Shown: piece by piece, positions 4,266 to 14,244 of the stretch | How positions within the stretch are numbered: the stretch's first letter is position 1 | How the letters are laid out: each line of letters opens with the position of its first letter | Assembly: GCF_003626535.1 (NCBI RefSeq) | Contig: NZ_RBAL01000006.1 | Location: 248,001 to 312,000, forward strand | Origin: Streptomyces hoynatensis | GTDB lineage: Bacteria; Actinomycetota; Actinomycetes; Streptomycetales; Streptomycetaceae | Length of the DNA stretch: 64,000 bases | Direction of reading: 5' to 3' | Position numbers and translations under genes: made by a program | The notes under the pieces: model-generated | The model's database searches: none | What the model was told of the DNA's origin: nothing | The model's input: the letters and a program-made list of their open reading frames with translations, nothing else

Positions 4266-5702
4266 TCAGGCCAGGCGCCTGATCTCGCCGCGCACCCGGT
4301 AGAAGCCGCCGGCCGCCGGGTGCACGGCGTCGACCACGTACCGGGCGCCGGCCTGGCGTATGTGCCGGGGGAACTGGACGTTCCACGAGGGGTCGAAGCC
4401 CGCGCTGGCCACCCGCACCCGCAGCCGCCCGCCGTCCTGCACGCACTCCACCACCACCCCGGAGTCCGGCACCGTGGCGACCGTCGCCACCGCGGCGGCG
4501 GTCGCCGGGGTGTAGGTGGGCAGCGCGGCGGCCGACTTGACGTCCCGTGCGATGGGCACCTGGCCGTCCTTGGCGTTCTCGATGGCCGCCTCGCTCGCGT
4601 CCACGCAGGCCAGCGAGCCGTCCGTGGTGACCAGGTAGAGCCGCCCGTCCAGATACTGCATCGACAGCGCCGAGCCGCTGCCGGTGCCCAGCTTCCACAG
4701 CCGCCGGCCGTCCTGGGCGAAGCAGTACACCGAGGAGGCCCCGTCCCCGGCGAACACGTACTGGCCGCCGGGCGCCGTCGCGCAGGAGTACACCGCCGCG
4801 TCGCAGGCGTACGTCGCCTCTATCCGGCCGGTCGCCTTGGACAGCCGCTGCACGACCCGCCGGTCGGTGCCCGCGTACACCGCGTCCGCCTCCTGCCAGC
4901 CGAACAGCACCGCCCCCGTGGTCGGCGTGTGCCACAGCTCGCCCCGTCCGTCCGGCGCGTAGGCCGTCACCCCGCGCCCGTGGCCGTGGAACACCGCCCG
5001 CTCGTCCCGGCGCACCATCCAGGCGTGGTCGCCGGCGCCGGACCGCGACCACTGGAACTCGTCCTCGTGGTCGATGACCGTCAGGCCGCCGCTGCGGTCC
5101 GAGACGTGCAGCACCCCCTCGTGGATGTCCAGCCAGAAGATGTCCACGTCGGCCGCTATCTCGTAGGCGGCGAACGGCAGCTTGCTCGACAGGTCGTAGA
5201 CGGTGCCGTCGTCGCAGCCGGCGTAGATCCAGAAGTCGTCGGCGACCAGGCACTTGACCCCGTCGGGCAGCCGGTACCTGGCCAGCACCTCGCCGCCGTG
5301 CGAGACCGTGTACACCTCGCCCGCCTGATTCCCCACCCAGCAGCGGTCCTCGTCCACGTGGATGCCGAAGGCGGCGGTGCCGGTCCTGAAGCGCCAGATC
5401 ACGGGGGCCAGCGCGCGGGCCGTCGAGGGCGCCGAGGTCACCTGGCGGCGCGTCACCGACCGGGCGGCGCGCTGCCCCTGGACCGCCGGGGCGTATCCCT
5501 TCCTGACCTTCTCGCCTATCTTCCTGGCCGCGGCGGCCGCGGCCTTCTCCGCGGTCGCGAACGCCTGCGTCTTGAGCTGGCCGGCCGAGCCGATCCGGCC
5601 GTAACGGACCGAGACCTCCGTGCCGTTCACCGTCACCTCGTAGAACTTGTGCGCGCCCCCGCCCTCTTCCGACAGCTCCAGATAGGTCCTGGTCCCGGCC
5701 AC
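4266..5702 (-). CDS. WGR domain protein with PQQ/WD-like beta-propeller
   Basis: About 478 residues from GTG 5702, chosen because an excellent Shine-Dalgarno (AGAGGAG) ends five bases before it; a longer frame to 5762 would begin only two bases after the -10 box. Residues about 1-75 form a WGR domain (TYLELSEE, KFYEV, VRYGRIGSAGQ), a module known from PARP proteins and bacterial DNA-damage proteins and thought to bind nucleic acid. The rest is a repeated beta-strand array (WVGNQAGEVYTV, IYAGCDDGTVYDL, YVFAGDGASSVYCF) consistent with a seven- or eight-bladed propeller. Its promoter matches the PafBC-type DNA-damage pattern, so a damage-response role is likely. The biochemical activity is unknown. 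Confidence 0.85.
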   Translation of the reverse strand: MAGTRTYLELSEEGGGAHKFYEVTVNGTEVSVRYGRIGSAGQLKTQAFATAEKAAAAAARKIGEKVRKGYAPAVQGQRAARSVTRRQVTSAPSTARALAPVIWRFRTGTAAFGIHVDEDRCWVGNQAGEVYTVSHGGEVLARYRLPDGVKCLVADDFWIYAGCDDGTVYDLSSKLPFAAYEIAADVDIFWLDIHEGVLHVSDRSGGLTVIDHEDEFQWSRSGAGDHAWMVRRDERAVFHGHGRGVTAYAPDGRGELWHTPTTGAVLFGWQEADAVYAGTDRRVVQRLSKATGRIEATYACDAAVYSCATAPGGQYVFAGDGASSVYCFAQDGRRLWKLGTGSGSALSMQYLDGRLYLVTTDGSLACVDASEAAIENAKDGQVPIARDVKSAAALPTYTPATAAAVATVATVPDSGVVVECVQDGGRLRVRVASAGFDPSWNVQFPRHIRQAGARYVVDAVHPAAGGFYRVRGEIRRLA

Positions 5703-5764
5703 GAAAACTCCTCTCCCCTGGGCGTCCCACGGCCGCCGTGACCGTCGATCACCACCTGTCACCC

Positions 5765-5787
5765 ACGTTAGGGGCCGCCACTGACAA
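5765..5787 (-). promoter_or_regulatory. RecA-NDp/PafBC-type promoter of the WGR gene
   Basis: On the minus strand TTGTCAGTG, eight bases, TAACGT. This is an exact fit to the mycobacterial/actinobacterial RecA-NDp consensus TTGTCRGTG-N8-TAnnnT bound by PafBC. It lies within the 116-base gap shared with the divergent MazF-fold gene. Confidence 0.75.
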
Positions 5788-5806
5788 CGGTCCGGGGCCG
5801 CGGCGA

Positions 5807-5812
5807 TAGCGT
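5807..5812 (+). promoter_or_regulatory. -10 element for leaderless MazF-fold gene
   Basis: TAGCGT six bases before ATG 5819 with no ribosome site between. Its -35 zone (about 5782-5788) overlaps the PafBC-type box of the divergent WGR gene, so the two promoters may interfere or be co-controlled. Confidence 0.5.
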
Positions 5813-5818
5813 GGGCCC

Positions 5819-6286
5819 ATGGAGCCCACCGACCGCAGTGAGATAGCCGAGATCCCAGGGCGCCGCGGGCCGGCCGCCACCGTCGAGATCCAGCCGCGCG
5901 CCGTCGGCGCCGTGCGAACCGAGTACTCCCCGCGGCCGGACGGCGACCCGGACCCCGGCGAGATCGTCTGGACCTGGGTGCCCTACGAGGAGAACGACGG
6001 CCGCGGCAAGGACCGCCCCGTGCTCGTCGTCGCCAGGGAGCCGCGGGCCGGGGGCGTCGAGACGCTGCTCGCCGTGCAGCTCTCCAGCCAGGACAGGAGC
6101 CGGGACCCGGAGTGGATGCCCCTGGGCTCGGGCCCCTGGGACCGCTCGGCCCGCGACTCGTGGGTCCACCTGGAGCGGGTCCTGCGGGTGCACCCCGAGG
6201 GCATGCGGCGCGAGGCCTGCGCCCTGGACCGGGCGCGGTTCAACCGGGTGGTGCACAGCCTCCAGCTGCGGCACGGCTGGCGCTGA
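5819..6286 (+). CDS. MazF/PemK-like protein, type II toxin fold
   Basis: 155 residues. After an N-terminal extension of about 45 residues, the PemK/MazF core begins with PGEIVWTWVPY and continues with KDRPVLVVARE and a C-terminal VVHSLQLRHGW. In family members this fold is a ribosome-independent mRNA endoribonuclease; here no antitoxin gene is adjacent, since the neighbours are the WGR gene and an exonuclease. The extension might act as a built-in regulator, or the protein may have a housekeeping role, as many orphan Streptomyces members may. Leaderless start supported by the TAGCGT element. Confidence 0.75.
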   Translation: MEPTDRSEIAEIPGRRGPAATVEIQPRAVGAVRTEYSPRPDGDPDPGEIVWTWVPYEENDGRGKDRPVLVVAREPRAGGVETLLAVQLSSQDRSRDPEWMPLGSGPWDRSARDSWVHLERVLRVHPEGMRREACALDRARFNRVVHSLQLRHGWR

Positions 6287-6380: not shown

Positions 6381-7238
6381 TTGAGCGGCTGGGCCGGTGA
6401 GCCGCTGGCCGGCTTCGACCTGGAGACCACGGGCACCGACGTCGAGCGCGACCGCGTCGTGTCCGGCGCCTGGGTGCTGCTCGGCCCCGGCGGGCGGCTC
6501 CTCGCCCGCCGCTCCTGGCTGCTCGACCCCGGCGTGCCGGTCCCCGAGGCCGCCACCGCGGTGCACGGTCTCGACACCGCGCACGTGCGCCGGCACGGCG
6601 GCGAGGCGAGGGCCGGCATCGAGGAGATGACGGCCCACCTCGCGGCCTCGCTGGCCGCGGGAACCCCGCTCGTGGTGATGAACGCCAAATACGACCTCAC
6701 GCTGCTCGACCGCGAATGCCGCAGGCACGGCCTGGCCACGCTGACCGCGCGGCTGGGCGGGCCGCCCGCGCCGGTGGTGGACCCCCTGGTCCTCGACCGG
6801 CACGCCGACCACTACCGCAGGGGCAAGCGGAACCTGGGCGTGCTGTGCGCGCTCTACGGCGTGGCCCTCGACCGTCCGCACGAGGCGGGGGCGGACGCGG
6901 TCGCGGCGGCCGGGGTGGCCAGGCGAATGGGCGGGCGGCACCCGGCGCTCGGCGCGCTGACCGCGCCCGAGCTGCACGCGCTCCAGGTGCGGGCCGCCGC
7001 CGAGCAGGGCAGGGCCCGGCTGCGGCGGCACGCCGCCGCCGGTGCGCCCGGGGCACCCGGCCCCACGGCGCGGCAGCCCGTGGCGGACGCCCCCTGGACG
7101 CCCTCCGCGCCCGGCGCGACGGCCTGGCCCGTCATCCCGCCCCCGGCGCTGCCCGCGCCGGCGCCGCCGCCCGGGGAGGGCGGCGCGGCGCCCGCCGCGG
7201 TCGGGGACGCGCCGGGCCGGGGCACCCCCGCGGGGTGA
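6381..7238 (+). CDS. DnaQ-like 3'-5' exonuclease (DEDDh)
   Basis: 285 residues from a TTG start at 6381, preceded by a G-rich stretch. The DEDDh signature is visible: FDLETTG near the N-terminus, the HGLDTAHV segment, NAKYDLTLL, and HEAGADAVAA, giving the histidine and last aspartate. Residues from about 210 onward form an Ala/Pro-rich tail with no fold. The family includes the proofreading subunit of DNA polymerase III and many stand-alone exonucleases; the stand-alone form with a disordered tail is common in Streptomyces. It lies 94 bases after the MazF-fold gene and could be co-transcribed with it. Confidence 0.85.
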   Translation: MSGWAGEPLAGFDLETTGTDVERDRVVSGAWVLLGPGGRLLARRSWLLDPGVPVPEAATAVHGLDTAHVRRHGGEARAGIEEMTAHLAASLAAGTPLVVMNAKYDLTLLDRECRRHGLATLTARLGGPPAPVVDPLVLDRHADHYRRGKRNLGVLCALYGVALDRPHEAGADAVAAAGVARRMGGRHPALGALTAPELHALQVRAAAEQGRARLRRHAAAGAPGAPGPTARQPVADAPWTPSAPGATAWPVIPPPALPAPAPPPGEGGAAPAAVGDAPGRGTPAG

Positions 7239-9564: not shown

Positions 9565-10107
9565 TCAGAAGAGCGGGGCGGGCAGCACGCCCTCAAGCGC
9601 CAGCAGGCTCCGCTTCGTCTCCAGGCCGCCGCCGAAGCCGCCTATGCCGCCGTCGGCCGCCACCACCCGGTGGCAGGGCACGATCACGGGCAGCGGATTG
9701 GCGCCCATCGCGGCCCCGACCGCGCGGGCGGCGTCCGGCTCCCCGACCCGCTCGGCGAGCTCCCGGTACCCCACCACGCTGCCGAAGGGCACCGAGGCCG
9801 CAAGCTCACGCAGCACCCGCTCGGTGAAGCCCGAGACCAGCGACCAGTCGAGCGGCAGCGCGAAGCGCCTGAGCTCGCCCGCGAAGTACGCGTCCAGGTC
9901 GCGGACGGCGCGGGCGAGCAGGGCGTCCTCCGCCGAGCGCCGCGGCCGCAGCCCGAGCCCGGCCTCCAGCCGCACCAGGGCCCGGCGCGTGACCCGGGCG
10001 TCCGCGTGGAAGACGACGCTGACCAGTCCGGCCGCGGTGGCGGCCAGCAGCAGCGGCCCGATGGGCGTCGGCCTGACCGTCCAGGCGCAGGAGGTGTCAC
10101 GGCTCAT
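9565..10107 (-). CDS. ogt: Methylated-DNA--protein-cysteine methyltransferase
   Basis: 180 residues. The alkyl-acceptor motif PCHRVV and the downstream [20 protein letters not shown] are canonical for Ogt/AGT proteins, which repair O6-alkylguanine by suicide transfer to the cysteine. A DNA-binding helical region precedes the active site. The ATG lies six bases after a TAGGTT -10 element, so the mRNA is probably leaderless. The promoter fits the PafBC-type damage pattern, placing ogt with the uvr genes in one response. It converges with the M23 gene across 132 GC-rich bases. Confidence 0.93.
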
Positions 10108-10113
10108 GCGCCC

Positions 10114-10136
10114 AACCTAAGGGGCACCACCGACAA
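10114..10136 (-). promoter_or_regulatory. RecA-NDp/PafBC-type promoter of ogt
   Basis: TTGTCGGTG, eight bases, TAGGTT, then six bases to the ATG. Exact fit to TTGTCRGTG-N8-TAnnnT. Confidence 0.75.
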
Positions 10137-10164
10137 CGGCCCCGCGCCTCCTGCCCGGGCCGCC

Positions 10165-11151
10165 TCAGCCCGCGAGCGCGTCCCGGACGACGTCGGGCAC
10201 GTCGCTGATGATCCCGTCCACGCCGAGGCCCGCCGCCGCCACGGCGGCCGGCCCGTCGTCGATCGTCCAGGCGTACACCTTCAGCGGGCGGCCCTGCGGC
10301 CCCGTGTGCGCCTGGATGCCGGCCACGTACGCGGCCGTGAGGTCCCGGTACCTCGGGTTGATCTCGTCGGCGAACTCGGCGTACTCCGCGACGTCGGCCG
10401 GGTCGGGGGCGCCGATGAACCCGGTCTCCACGCCGGGTGCCAGCGCGTGCACGGTGCGCACCGCCTCCGCGTCGAAGCTCTGGATCACCAGCCGCTCGCC
10501 CGGCTCGCCGCCGAGCCAGCCGAGCCGCTCCAGCTCCGCCAGCACCTCCGCCTCGATGCCGGGGTAGAGCTCGGGCGACTTCAGCTCGAGCAGCAGGCTC
10601 TGGCCGCGCGAGCGGAGCCCCGCCAGCCAGTCGCCGAGCGTGGGCACCCGCTCCCCGGCGAACTCCGCGCCGAACCAGCTCCCGGCGTCCAGGGTGGCGA
10701 TCTCGGCCGCCGTGAAGTCGGAGACGTTCCACGGGGCGCGGCCCGGATAGCGCTCCTCCACGTCCGTGGTGCGCTCCAGCGTCGTGTCGTGCATGAGGAT
10801 CAGCGCGCCGTCCGCGGTGCGCTGCACGTCCGTCTCGACCCAGGCGATGCCCAGGTCGGCCGCGGCCTCCGCGGCGGCCAGGGTGTTCTCCGGGGCGTGG
10901 CCCGAGGCGCCGCGGTGGCCCACGACCAGCGGCCCCGCCGCGTCCCGCGCCCGGGGCCCGGCCGCCCCGGCGCGCCCGGGGGAGGCCGCGGGCGGGGCGG
11001 CGAACTCGGCCGCGGCGCTGCCCAGTTCGGGCGAGGCGTCCCGGGCGGGCGCCGCCTGGCCGCCGAGGGAGGGGGCGGCGAAGGGGGCGATCGCGAGCGC
11101 CGCGAGACCGAGGACCCAGCCCGCCCGGCGGGCGGCGGAGCGCTTCGGCAT
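10165..11151 (-). CDS. Secreted glycerophosphodiester phosphodiesterase
   Basis: 328 residues. A basic N-terminus and hydrophobic stretch ([15 protein letters not shown]) give a signal peptide, followed by an Ala/Pro-rich linker. The GDPD catalytic domain starts with [18 protein letters not shown] and continues with [17 protein letters not shown], which supply the catalytic histidines and the metal-binding glutamate and aspartate. LLLELKSPE and the C-terminal GIISDVP also match the family. It probably hydrolyses glycerophosphodiesters outside the cell to release glycerol 3-phosphate. A GGAG ribosome site precedes the ATG. Confidence 0.92.
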
Positions 11152-11397
11152 GGGGGGACTCCAAGCTTCGTGGGGGCGCGGCGCACTGCACGGACGCCAC
11201 GGGACACCGGAAATCTCTCCCGCGCCCGGAACGGGAGGGGAGGTGGGCGGTTACCGCGGGCTGAACTCTTGGCGCCCCCGGCCCGGCAGCCCGCCCGGCG
11301 CCGCCCGACCGTTCTCCCTGGTCACCCGCCGTCCATCCCGGCTTCCGCGGGGCGTCACCCGGGCCCCGGCCGCTCCCGCGACGGCCGCCGGGGCCCG

Positions 11398-11420
11398 TTG
11401 TCAGTGGCGGGTCGTACGGT
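11398..11420 (+). promoter_or_regulatory. RecA-NDp/PafBC-type promoter of uvrB
   Basis: TTGTCAGTG (11398-11406), eight bases, TACGGT (11415-11420), then seven bases to the ATG. Exact fit to the consensus and a leaderless or near-leaderless arrangement. Confidence 0.8.
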
Positions 11421-11427
11421 GGGGGAC

Positions 11428-13533
11428 ATGCGGCCCGTTTCTGACATCGAACGCACGGTGGCGCCCTTCAAGGTCGTCAGCGAGTACCAGCCGAGCGGCG
11501 ACCAGCCGGCGGCCATCGACGAACTCGCCAGGCGCGTCTCGGGAGGGGAGAAGGACGTCGTCCTGCTCGGCGCCACAGGCACCGGCAAGTCGGCGACCAC
11601 GGCGTGGATGGTCGAGCGCCTGCAGCGCCCCACGCTGGTCATCGCGCCGAACAAGACGCTGGCCGCCCAGCTGGCGAACGAGTTTCGCGAGCTCCTCCCG
11701 GACAACGCGGTGGAGTACTTCGTCTCGTACTACGACTACTACCAGCCCGAGGCGTACGTCCCGCAGACGGACACCTACATCGAGAAGGACTCCTCGATCA
11801 ACGAGGAGGTCGAGCGCCTGCGGCACAGCGCGACCAACGCGCTGCTCACCCGGCGCGACGTGATCGTGGTGGCCTCCGTCTCCTGCATCTACGGCCTGGG
11901 CACCCCGCAGGAGTACGTCGACCGGATGGTGCCGCTCAAGGTCGGCCAGGAGATCGACCGGGACGCGCTGCTGCGGCGCTTCGTGGACATCCAGTACACG
12001 CGCAACGACCTGGCGTTCACCCGCGGCACCTTCCGGGTGCGCGGCGACACCATCGAGATCTTCCCGGTGTACGAGGAGCTCGCCGTCCGCATCGAGATGT
12101 TCGGGGACGAGATCGAGGCGCTGTCCACGCTGCACCCGCTGACCGGCGAGGTGATCAGCCAGGACGACCACCTCTACGTGTTCCCCGCCTCCCACTACGT
12201 GGCGGGCCCCGAGCGCATGGAGCGGGCCATCTCCGGCATCGAGACCGAGCTGTCCGAGCGCCTGGCGACGCTGGAGCGGCAGGGGAAGCTGCTGGAGGCG
12301 CAGCGGCTGCGCATGCGCACCACCTACGACATCGAGATGCTGCGCCAGATCGGCACCTGCTCCGGCATCGAGAACTACTCGCTCCACGTGGACGGCCGCG
12401 AGACCGGCAGCCCGCCCTACACCCTCCTCGACTACTTCCCCGAGGACTTCCTGCTGGTCATCGACGAGTCGCACAACACGGTCCCGCAGATCGGCGCCAT
12501 GTACGAGGGCGACGCCTCGCGCAAGCGGACCCTGGTCGACCACGGCTTCCGGCTGCCGTCCGCGATGGACAACCGGCCGCTGAAGTGGGAGGAGTTCCTG
12601 GAGCGCGTCGGGCAGACGGTGTACCTCTCCGCCACGCCGGGGCCGTACGAGCTCTCCCGGTCCGACGGCGTGGTCGAGCAGATCATCCGGCCGACCGGCC
12701 TGGTGGACCCGGAGGTGGTCGTCAAGCCCACGGAGGGCCAGATCGACGACCTGGTGCACGAGATCCGCACCCGCGCCGAGCGGGACGAGCGGGTGCTGGT
12801 CACGACGCTGACCAAGAAGATGGCCGAGGACCTCACGGACTACTTCGTGGAGCTGGGCATCCGCGTCCGGTACCTGCACAGCGACGTGGACACCCTGCGC
12901 CGCGTGGAGCTCCTGCGCGAGCTGCGGGCCGGCGAGTACGACGTCCTGGTCGGGATCAACCTGCTGCGTGAGGGCCTCGACCTGCCCGAGGTCTCGCTGG
13001 TCGCCATCCTCGACGCCGACAAGGAGGGCTTCCTGCGCTCGGGGACGGCCCTGATCCAGACCATCGGCCGGGCCGCGCGGAACGTCTCGGGCCAGGTCCA
13101 CATGTACGCCGACCGGGTGACGCCGGCCATGGAGCGGGCCATCGAGGAGACGAACCGGCGCCGCGTCAAGCAGATCGCCTACAACCAGGCGCACGGCATC
13201 GACCCCCAGCCGCTGCGCAAGAAGATCAACGACATCGTGGCCTCCATCGCGCGCGAGGACGTGGACACCAGGGAGCTGCTCGACACCGGCTACCGCCAGC
13301 CGGCCCAGGCGGGGACCAGGAAGACGCCGGTGCCCGCGAAGCCGGCCAGGCGCGGCGAGGGGGAGCTCACCGACCGGCCGGCCGCGGAGCTGGCCGACAC
13401 CATCGAGGAGCTGACCGCCCGCATGCGGGCCGCCGCGGCCGAGCTGCAGTTCGAGGTCGCGGCCAGGCTGCGGGACCAGGTGTCCGACCTGAAGAAGGAG
13501 CTGCGGCAGATGCGGGAGGTGGGCCTGAGCTGA
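11428..13533 (+). CDS. uvrB: Excinuclease ABC subunit UvrB
   Basis: 701 residues, full family length. UvrB is the DNA-loading helicase-like subunit of nucleotide excision repair; it receives damage from UvrA and recruits UvrC. Walker A is GATGTGKS at residues 48-55, the damage-clamping beta-hairpin is marked by [12 protein letters not shown], and helicase motifs LLVIDESH and [16 protein letters not shown] follow. The C-terminal UVR domain (about residues 660-695) contacts UvrC. The frame is open far upstream, but the start is placed at ATG 11428 by the damage promoter seven bases before it and by family length. Confidence 0.97.
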
Positions 13534-13659: not shown

Positions 13660-14244
13660 ATGGGCATCGACCTGTCCAAGGGCCAGGCCATCAGCCTGGA
13701 GAAGAGGGGCGGGGGCGGCTTGTCGAGAATCCGCATGGGCCTGGGCTGGCAGGCCGCGAAGCGCGGCGGGTTCCTCGGCAAGGTGTTCGGCGGGGGCGGC
13801 GAGATCGACCTCGACGCCTCGGCCGTGCTCTTCGCCGACGCGGAGGCCCAGGACGTGGTCTACTTCCGCAAGCTCACGAGCAGCGACGGCTCCGTCACCC
13901 ACTCCGGGGACAACCTGACGGGCGGCGGGGGCCGGGAGGACGACGAGGCGATCACCGTGGACCTGGAGCGGGTTCCCGACCGCATCGACCAGATCGTCTT
14001 CACGGTGAACTCCTTCACCGGTCAGCGCTTCACCGAGGTCGAGCAGGCGTTCTGCCGCCTCGTGGACGAGGCGACGGGCGAGGAGCTGGCCCGGTACACC
14101 CTCGCCGGCGGCGGCGCGCACACCGGGCAGATCATGGCCAAGGTGCGCCGGGAGGGCCCGGGCTGGCAGATGACCGCCATCGGCGCCCCCGCGGACGGCC
14201 GCACCTTCCAGGACCTGCTCCCGGCCATCAAGCAGCACGTGTGA
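13660..14244 (+). CDS. TerD family protein
   Basis: 194 residues with an AAGGAGAG ribosome site. It opens with the family MGIDLSKGQAISLEK and contains EIDLDASAVLFA, the HSGDNLTGGG segment and the acidic REDDEAITVDLERVP, which form the two calcium sites of TerD proteins. Roles proposed for the family include tellurite resistance and calcium-linked stress or differentiation in Streptomyces; several paralogues usually exist. It stands alone here, followed by a strong bidirectional terminator. Confidence 0.9.
   Translation: MGIDLSKGQAISLEKRGGGGLSRIRMGLGWQAAKRGGFLGKVFGGGGEIDLDASAVLFADAEAQDVVYFRKLTSSDGSVTHSGDNLTGGGGREDDEAITVDLERVPDRIDQIVFTVNSFTGQRFTEVEQAFCRLVDEATGEELARYTLAGGGAHTGQIMAKVRREGPGWQMTAIGAPADGRTFQDLLPAIKQHV

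What the first reader, a model, noticed from the sequence alone, without database searches (positions are those of the whole stretch)
4266..6286. Damage-inducible WGR/beta-propeller protein divergent from an orphan MazF-fold protein
A WGR domain fused to a propeller has a perfect PafBC-type promoter. The box overlaps the -35 zone of a leaderless MazF/PemK-fold gene on the other strand, which has no adjacent antitoxin and carries a 45-residue N-terminal extension. Together with the following DEDDh exonuclease, this could be an uncharacterised damage-response module acting on nucleic acid. The functional link is inference.
Basis: partly seen in the sequence, partly recalled or inferred. Interest (0 to 1): 0.65.

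Follow-up and report, generated by a model that had tools for sequence, protein, structure and literature searches.

The report
Damage-induced WGR propeller DNA-repair scaffold
A bacterial protein carrying the DNA-break-sensing domain of human PARP enzymes on a propeller platform is very probably switched on by DNA damage in many Streptomyces, while the toxin-like gene next to it is just a neighbour.

Summary
The minus-strand gene 5702-4266 encodes WGR + seven-bladed propeller + a small C-terminal domain unknown to Pfam. Its RecA-NDp/PafBC box (5765-5787, minus) is conserved: the core TGTC-N12-TANNNT stands upstream of 43 of 43 family orthologs and 8 of 8 intact orthologs from other families, and at none of the eight other spacings tested; the strict box is in 79 of 80 named loci. 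The gene changes address but keeps this promoter. The MazF-fold gene is a neighbour in 7 of 80 and 2 of 43 loci and co-occurs with the WGR gene at chance (p = 0.84); the exonuclease is not conserved there. The window's uvrB and ogt also carry the box. WGR genes of other architectures, mostly WGR-DUF4132 size, have the core in 20 of 27 loci. In print, WGR genes belong to the DdrO regulon (Deinococcus) and to an SOS gene list (E. coli yehF). So bacterial WGR proteins look repeatedly wired to DNA-damage regulons. Most likely mechanism: a PafBC-induced scaffold that binds DNA ends and docks repair partners. Induction, DNA binding and partners are inferred, not shown.

The parts
4266..5702 (-). WGR / seven-bladed propeller / C-terminal beta-domain protein, 478 aa, GTG start
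5478..5690 (-). WGR domain (residues 5-75); YGRIG motif, G35 and R36 invariant in all 31 aligned sequences (window protein and 30 orthologs)
4599..5402 (-). propeller, residues 101-368, seven four-stranded blades in the model
4269..4508 (-). C-terminal domain (residues 399-478), no Pfam match; AF2 pLDDT 88.9; small beta domain weakly like OB folds
5765..5787 (-). RecA-NDp / PafBC-type promoter box TTGTCAGTG-N8-TAACGT of the WGR gene
5819..6286 (+). PemK/MazF-fold protein, 155 aa, leaderless, conserved 45-residue N-terminal extension; neighbour, not part of the system
5807..5812 (+). putative -10 (TAGCGT) of the MazF-fold gene, 6 nt before its ATG; same arrangement in its orthologs
6381..7238 (+). 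DEDDh exonuclease (PRK07942-like); neighbour, not conserved beside the WGR gene
9565..10107 (-). O6-methylguanine-DNA methyltransferase (ogt), same PafBC-type promoter
   Evidence: L183
10114..10136 (-). PafBC-type box of ogt (one mismatch to TTGTCAGTG)
11398..11420 (+). PafBC-type box of uvrB
11428..13533 (+). uvrB (identified from its translation by eye); regulon neighbour, head-to-head with the WGR gene in at least one species (L045)

Best explanation
The gene encodes a PafBC-regulon DNA-repair scaffold. DNA damage produces ssDNA, ssDNA-activated PafBC lets RNA polymerase fire from the TGTC-N12-TANNNT promoter, and the protein is made together with RecA, UvrB and others. Its N-terminal WGR domain then docks on DNA ends or nicks, as in PARP1-3 but without an ADP-ribosyltransferase. 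The OB-like C-terminal domain may hold the adjacent single strand, and the propeller is a docking platform for repair enzymes. Shown: promoter sequence, its conservation and spacing, regulon context, domain architecture. Inferred: induction, DNA binding, ssDNA binding, partners, role in repair. The MazF-fold and exonuclease genes are bystanders.
For: Core promoter at exactly N12 in 43 of 43 family and 8 of 8 intact outside-family orthologs, none at N8-N11 or N13-N16. Strict box in 36 of 43 and 79 of 80; 11 of the 13 other strict hits in the 43 loci lie in front of uvrB or ogt. Conservation falls off outside the box. No constant neighbour, so the promoter travels with the gene. The regulon has recA, uvrB, ogt, ruvC, rarA, UDG, AlkZ-like, dnaX, RecD-like, PD-(D/E)XK and DnaQ-type genes. 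A WYL gene pair lies near the two Pup-ligase-family genes, the expected pafBC place. PafBC is activated by ssDNA in mycobacteria (PMC11804915, passages). The S. coelicolor SCO6735 promoter of the same type is UV-inducible 5-fold (PMC5087735, passages). Y is the commonest first letter of the WGR motif in bacterial PARPs (PMC5966428, passages). Other WGR genes carry the core in 20 of 27 loci. DR2173 (WGR) is MMC-induced and IrrE-dependent (PMC8533742, passages); E. coli yehF is in an SOS gene list, log2 up to 1.14 after ciprofloxacin (PMC11002266, passages).
Against: No expression or binding data here. WGR lacks the W of PARP1 (Y/F instead). OB resemblance is weak (Foldseek best E 0.09; best Z 4.4). 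Seven of 27 WGR loci outside the propeller family lack the core, including the window genome's own second WGR protein. SCO6735, from the same promoter class, gave no significant damage sensitivity when deleted, so a phenotype is not assured. One S. venezuelae study found the mycobacterial PafBC motif not conserved in an initial search (PMC9380542, passage). About half of the family genomes sampled lack the gene (78 of 121 without an ortholog), so it is not essential.
Confidence: 0.55

Rival explanations
1. WGR, MazF-fold and exonuclease genes form one damage-response module acting on nucleic acid.
For: The divergent pair WGR/MazF-fold occurs in 7 of 80 named loci at 67-83% identity; in one of 27 MazF-fold loci (L082) the MazF-fold gene has its own PafBC-type box.
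Against: 2 of 43 in the family sample; co-occurrence at chance, p = 0.84; exonuclease adjacent in none of 42 other family loci and weakly in 1 of 80; no core box of its own in 26 of 27 MazF-fold loci.
Confidence: 0.04
2. The protein regulates or recruits an ADP-ribosylation pathway: WGR as an allosteric partner of an unidentified ADP-ribosyltransferase, in the same regulon as the TARG1/DarG-like hydrolase SCO6735.
For: WGR is a PARP domain; SCO6735 has the same promoter type and removes thymidine-linked ADP-ribose (PMC5087735, PMC9411070, passages).
Against: No constant neighbour of any kind; no macrodomain among the 20 of 27 box genes scanned with Pfam.
Confidence: 0.1
3. The protein binds RNA rather than DNA, for example tRNA or rRNA fragments made under stress, and protects or sorts RNA.
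For: Weak C-terminal matches include IF1A, RNase R and exosome chains; WGR is called a predicted nucleic-acid-binding domain in print (PMC4275035, passage).
Against: The identifiable regulon members are mostly DNA-repair genes.
Confidence: 0.12
4. Anti-phage defence component induced by damage during infection.
For: PADLOC has a WGR candidate family; a Cas3-HD gene in this genome also carries the box.
Against: PADLOC WGR hit E 0.0015 over the WGR only; no gene family recurs beside it in more than 9 of 43 loci. The neighbours were not scanned against the defence library.
Confidence: 0.06

Closest known systems
PafBC / RecA-NDp regulon of Actinobacteria
   Same: Same promoter layout (TTGTCRGTG-N8-TANNNT; SCO6735 promoter as printed in PMC5087735 fits it) and same company (recA, uvrB, ruvC)
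   Different: This member is not a known repair enzyme, and my searches found no report of it
PARP1/2/3 WGR domain
   Same: WGR family by Pfam, conserved G-R of the motif; PARP3 2eoc aligned weakly over 33-71 (E 0.6)
   Different: W replaced by Y/F; no PARP regulatory or catalytic domain; fused to a propeller
WGR-DUF4132 proteins
   Same: N-terminal WGR; the PafBC-type core promoter in 19 of 20 loci of the window's family and 1 of 4 others
   Different: About 1,200 aa, no propeller family match; architecture confirmed by Pfam in 3 of 3 scanned
D. radiodurans DR2173 and E. coli YehF
   Same: WGR genes under DNA-damage control (DdrO regulon; SOS gene list)
   Different: Different regulators; YehF is WGR plus about 200 aa without a Pfam match, and DUF4132 is in a separate gene, yehI
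Bacteroides fragilis 2ra8 (Q64V53)
   Same: Best solved WGR match, E 4.9e-9
   Different: Uncharacterized; matched over the WGR only
SCO6735 macrodomain of S. coelicolor
   Same: Same promoter type, shown to be UV-inducible (PMC5087735)
   Different: Enzyme that removes ADP-ribose; unrelated fold

Membership tests
PafBC (RecA-NDp) regulon | Promoter with TTGTCRGTG-type upstream element and TANNNT -10 at fixed spacing | tested here: met
PafBC (RecA-NDp) regulon | PafBC encoded in the genome | tested here: met
   two WYL matches 0.8 kb apart at C10:79-80 kb, near two Pup-ligase-family genes at C10:82 and 87 kb; identity as PafB/PafC by position only
PafBC (RecA-NDp) regulon | Damage induction lost without PafBC | not testable with these tools
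   needs expression data
WGR-domain proteins | PF05406 above its cut-off | tested here: met
   65.4 bits against 22
WGR DNA-break sensors (PARP type) | Conserved G-R of the motif and DNA-dependent binding | tested here: inconclusive
   G35 R36 invariant in 31 of 31 sequences; binding not testable here
PARP enzymes | PARP catalytic domain | tested here: not met
   only WGR and propeller families found at E up to 1
Seven-bladed PQQ/WD-type propellers | Seven four-stranded blades | tested here: met
   AF2 secondary structure; Foldseek matches, E down to 5e-14, propellers as I recognise the names; residues 174-188 of low confidence
OB fold (C-terminal domain) | Five-stranded OB barrel | tested here: inconclusive
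   weak matches, best Z 4.4
MazF/MazE type II toxin-antitoxin pair (5819-6286) | PemK/MazF fold | tested here: met
   PF02452 52 bits against 23.1
MazF/MazE type II toxin-antitoxin pair (5819-6286) | Adjacent antitoxin gene | tested here: not met
   flanked by the divergent WGR gene and the exonuclease gene with gaps of only 116 and 94 nt
WGR + MazF + exonuclease module | Conserved synteny and co-occurrence | tested here: not met
   7 of 80, 2 of 43, p = 0.84

The most novel reading that the evidence does not exclude
The WGR domain is a general bacterial damage-regulon module: a PARP-type DNA-end sensor without ADP-ribosylation. It has been fused independently to propeller-OB, DUF4132 and other bodies and placed under LexA, DdrO or PafBC in three phyla. 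The Streptomyces WGR-propeller is then the first member whose body (a seven-bladed protein-docking platform plus an OB-like ssDNA clamp) suggests how it works: it marks broken ends and assembles repair enzymes on them.
Probability: 0.4. Interest if true: 0.8.

Novelty: new variant of a known kind. Interest (0 to 1): 0.6.

Why it matters
Bacterial WGR proteins occur in many phyla and, as far as my searches showed, lack an established function. Showing that two different WGR architectures keep a PafBC-type promoter across genera, while LexA- and DdrO-type control of WGR genes is in print for other phyla, gives the domain a common context (DNA damage) and makes its function testable in laboratory streptomycetes. 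It also shows a rich PafBC-type promoter set in a streptomycete, although one S. venezuelae study reported the mycobacterial motif as not conserved there.

Tried and rejected
Rejected: the three-gene module. Rejected: a functional meaning of the box/-35 overlap, because the spacing drifts among loci and no sigma-70-type promoter scored in 5650-5900 (that scan also misses the PafBC type). Rejected: an operon or constant partner; the commonest neighbour cluster is in 9 of 43 loci and reads, by eye, as a response regulator (my own gene calls). No inverted or direct repeats in 5680-5860. PADLOC hits too weak to file the protein under defence. Phmmer of the MazF-fold protein against PDB gave nothing at E up to 1. 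Pfam found nothing for the C-terminal domain at E up to 10; its fold comparison was weak, so the OB reading is only a lead. An SOS-box-like site 8 nt before E. coli yehF is 1 of 14 sites at that stringency in 35 kb, so by itself it proves nothing; the SOS assignment rests on the papers.

Results against the reading: of 30 WGR hits in the class sample, 7 lack the core promoter: L292, L294, L297, L298 (broken propeller gene), L299, L300, L301 (second WGR protein of this genome). That sweep overlaps the earlier samples: 21 of its 23 positive hits are propeller orthologs, 20 of which (all but none dropped) were already. For WGR loci outside the propeller family, one search gave 20 of 24; with L299, L300 and L301, which it did not include, 20 of 27. 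DUF4132 was checked in only 3 of these, and some genomes give two loci. The strict box is absent in 7 of 43 family loci, where only the core is kept. Orthologs are related, so counts are not independent events; the spacing control and the flank profile are the better tests, and the core letters are fixed by the selection, so only the other positions are evidence. My notebook entry 2 calls DR2173 'WGR-DUF4132'; the passage gives DR2173 only the WGR and puts DUF4132 in DRA0166. My first count of the box (27 of 30) used another pattern and is replaced.

Full report
What is there. The minus-strand gene 5702-4266 encodes 478 aa with an N-terminal WGR domain (PF05406, E 5.3e-18, residues 5-75) and propeller repeats. 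AlphaFold2 on 51 sequences (the window protein and 50 of the 80 named loci) gives mean pLDDT 79.1, pTM 0.63, and strands that I count as seven four-stranded blades over residues 101-368; 174-177 and 182-188 are poorly modelled. The Foldseek rows shown are, as I recognise the names, propellers. Residues 399-478 form a separate domain: the last 64 residues have no Pfam match, and the 80-residue piece is modelled at pLDDT 88.9. Its best structural matches are weak, and many are, by my own recognition, OB-fold chains (aIF1A, RNase R, CspA, Rho, mtSSB, CST; E 0.09 or worse, Z 4.4 or less). Its invariant residues include arginines and aromatics. In the WGR domain G35 and R36 are invariant in all 31 aligned sequences and the first motif letter is Y or F; a published survey says Y is the commonest in bacterial PARPs (PMC5966428, passages).

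The promoter. TTGTCAGTGGCGGCCCCTAACGT lies at 5765-5787 on the minus strand, 62-85 nt before the GTG. The pattern TTGTCAGTGN8TANNRT occurs 5 times in the 7.26-Mb genome and 0 times read backwards: before recA, uvrB, a mycothiol-S-transferase/DinB-family gene, the WGR gene, and one site (L002/L170) whose gene I could not assign. The relaxed TGTCRGTGN8TANNNT occurs 27 times against 1. Of the genes behind these 27 sites, 20 were scanned with Pfam; besides recA, uvrB and the WGR gene (recognised from sequence) they include ogt, ruvC, rarA/mgsA, a RecD-type helicase, a DEAD/DEAH helicase, a PD-(D/E)XK nuclease, a uracil-DNA glycosylase, an AlkZ-like glycosylase, dnaX and a DnaQ-type exonuclease. 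The rest are not repair genes by Pfam (GNAT, HAD hydrolase, two TerD, Cas3-HD, mycothiol-S-transferase), have no match (L172, L176, L177, L187), or were not assigned (L165, L170, L171, L173). A two-gene WYL locus near two Pup-ligase-family genes is the likely pafBC. The same promoter type stands before SCO6735 in S. coelicolor, 5-fold up after UV (PMC5087735, passages).

Phylogenetic footprint. Full-length orthologs were found in 42 of 121 family genomes (the window's included), plus one frameshifted copy (43 loci analysed). Strict box TGTC[AG]GTGN8TANNNT within 250 nt upstream: 36 of 43; elsewhere in the same loci 13 hits in 1.53 million strand-bases, 0.002 expected per 250 nt. Eleven of those 13 lie in front of uvrB or ogt. 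The core TGTC-N12-TANNNT: 43 of 43, and 8 of 8 intact orthologs outside the family, with 0 of 43 and 0 of 8 at spacers 8-11 and 13-16; the broken ortholog in G333 lacks it (background there 1 hit in 76,074 strand-bases, 0.0026 per 200 nt). Base conservation is confined to the box: at positions not fixed by the core pattern (4 to 6 after the first T of TGTC) relative entropy is 0.9-1.8 bits, against 0.01-0.26 upstream of the TTGTC and 0.02-0.44 downstream of the -10 (51 sequences). Of the best 80 named loci (79 labelled Streptomyces, one Streptosporangium), 79 have the strict box and the 80th (L150) has one mismatch.

Neighbours. No gene family is constant beside the WGR gene: the commonest neighbour cluster is in 9 of 43 loci (my gene calls). 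uvrB is within the fetched stretch in 6 of 43 and within 3 kb in 10 of 80, ogt in 12 of 80. In L045 the uvrB and WGR boxes are divergent and 44 nt apart. In the window itself three boxes (WGR, ogt, uvrB) lie within 5.7 kb. The MazF-fold gene is adjacent in 7 of 80 and 2 of 43. Its orthologs occur in 79 of 121 genomes, the WGR gene in 43, both in 29; Fisher p = 0.84. It is a conserved family with its own N-terminal extension, leaderless in 27 of 27 loci, and only once (L082, of 27) with a PafBC-type box of its own.

Other WGR genes. Proteins of about 1,200 aa with WGR and DUF4132 (3 of 3 scanned) occur in the same family. Of 24 WGR loci outside the propeller family, 20 have the core promoter at N12 and none at the eight other spacings: 19 of 20 from the window's family, 1 of 4 from elsewhere. 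Three more, examined, lack it: 20 of 27 in all. A sweep with PF05406 over 296 genomes of the class, overlapping these samples, gave 23 of 30 WGR hits with the core, again none at other spacings. In print: DR2173 of Deinococcus has an N-terminal WGR and an RDRM box, and its tagged protein rises with mitomycin C only if IrrE is present (PMC8533742, passages); yehF of E. coli, WGR by Pfam, is in a table of SOS genes with log2 changes of -0.12 to 1.14 over 120 min of ciprofloxacin (PMC11002266, passages).

Explanation. Shown: a damage-type promoter that follows the gene wherever it sits, and the architecture. Inferred: a damage-induced scaffold that recognises DNA ends or nicks by WGR, perhaps ssDNA by the C-terminal domain, and docks repair enzymes by the propeller. 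Regulon membership I hold at about 0.95, the scaffold mechanism at about 0.55.

Print check. Searches for WGR domain with Streptomyces and DNA damage (6 papers, listing only), WGR domain with bacteria (58 papers, 30 listed, passages of three read), PafBC with Streptomyces, DNA damage and promoter (16 papers, passages of four read), RecA-NDp (6 papers), Streptomyces with mitomycin and WGR (one unrelated paper) and DUF4132 with DNA damage (one paper) showed no report of this protein or of WGR genes under PafBC. The library holds open-licence papers only; Gamulin et al. 2004 (which defined RecA-NDp) and Muller et al. 2018 are not held, so they could name this gene without my knowing. PMC9380542 (passage) says an initial search suggested the mycobacterial PafBC motif is not conserved in S. 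venezuelae; I did not test that species.

Noticed in passing
window 9565-11428: ogt and uvrB each carry a PafBC-type box about 28-29 nt before their start codons, implying leaderless damage-induced mRNAs in one 5.7-kb repair neighbourhood with the WGR gene.
   Followed up: yes
L164 (G000:C5:98119): A gene with a Cas3 HD domain carries a PafBC-type box 29 nt before its start: possible damage control of a CRISPR-Cas nuclease.
   Followed up: partly
L179, L186 (G000:C48:129751, C50:54834): Two TerD-family genes carry PafBC-type boxes; another TerD-like gene (by eye) sits beside uvrB in the window (about 13660-14244).
   Followed up: partly
window 4266-5702: Seven cysteines (C151, C163, C300, C307, C327, C366, C420) are invariant in all 31 aligned sequences; I know of no metal site or redox role.
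   Followed up: no
L204 (G104): The MazF-fold gene faces an intact PafBC-type box but that genome gave no WGR-propeller match: possibly a promoter left behind after gene loss.
   Followed up: partly
L082: Here the MazF-fold gene has its own PafBC-type box on its own strand, the only one of 27 loci.
   Followed up: no
G000:C43:384839-385957 (L266): Second WGR protein of this genome, about 372 aa, without a PafBC-type promoter.
   Followed up: partly
window 5819-6286 and orthologs: Solitary MazF-fold family in 79 of 121 genomes, leaderless in 27 of 27 loci, with a conserved N-terminal extension and no room for an antitoxin beside it in the window: it may be a housekeeping protein rather than a toxin.
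   Followed up: partly
L176, L177: Two proteins (497 aa or more, open at the locus end; 314 aa) without Pfam matches at 1e-5 also stand behind PafBC-type boxes.
   Followed up: no
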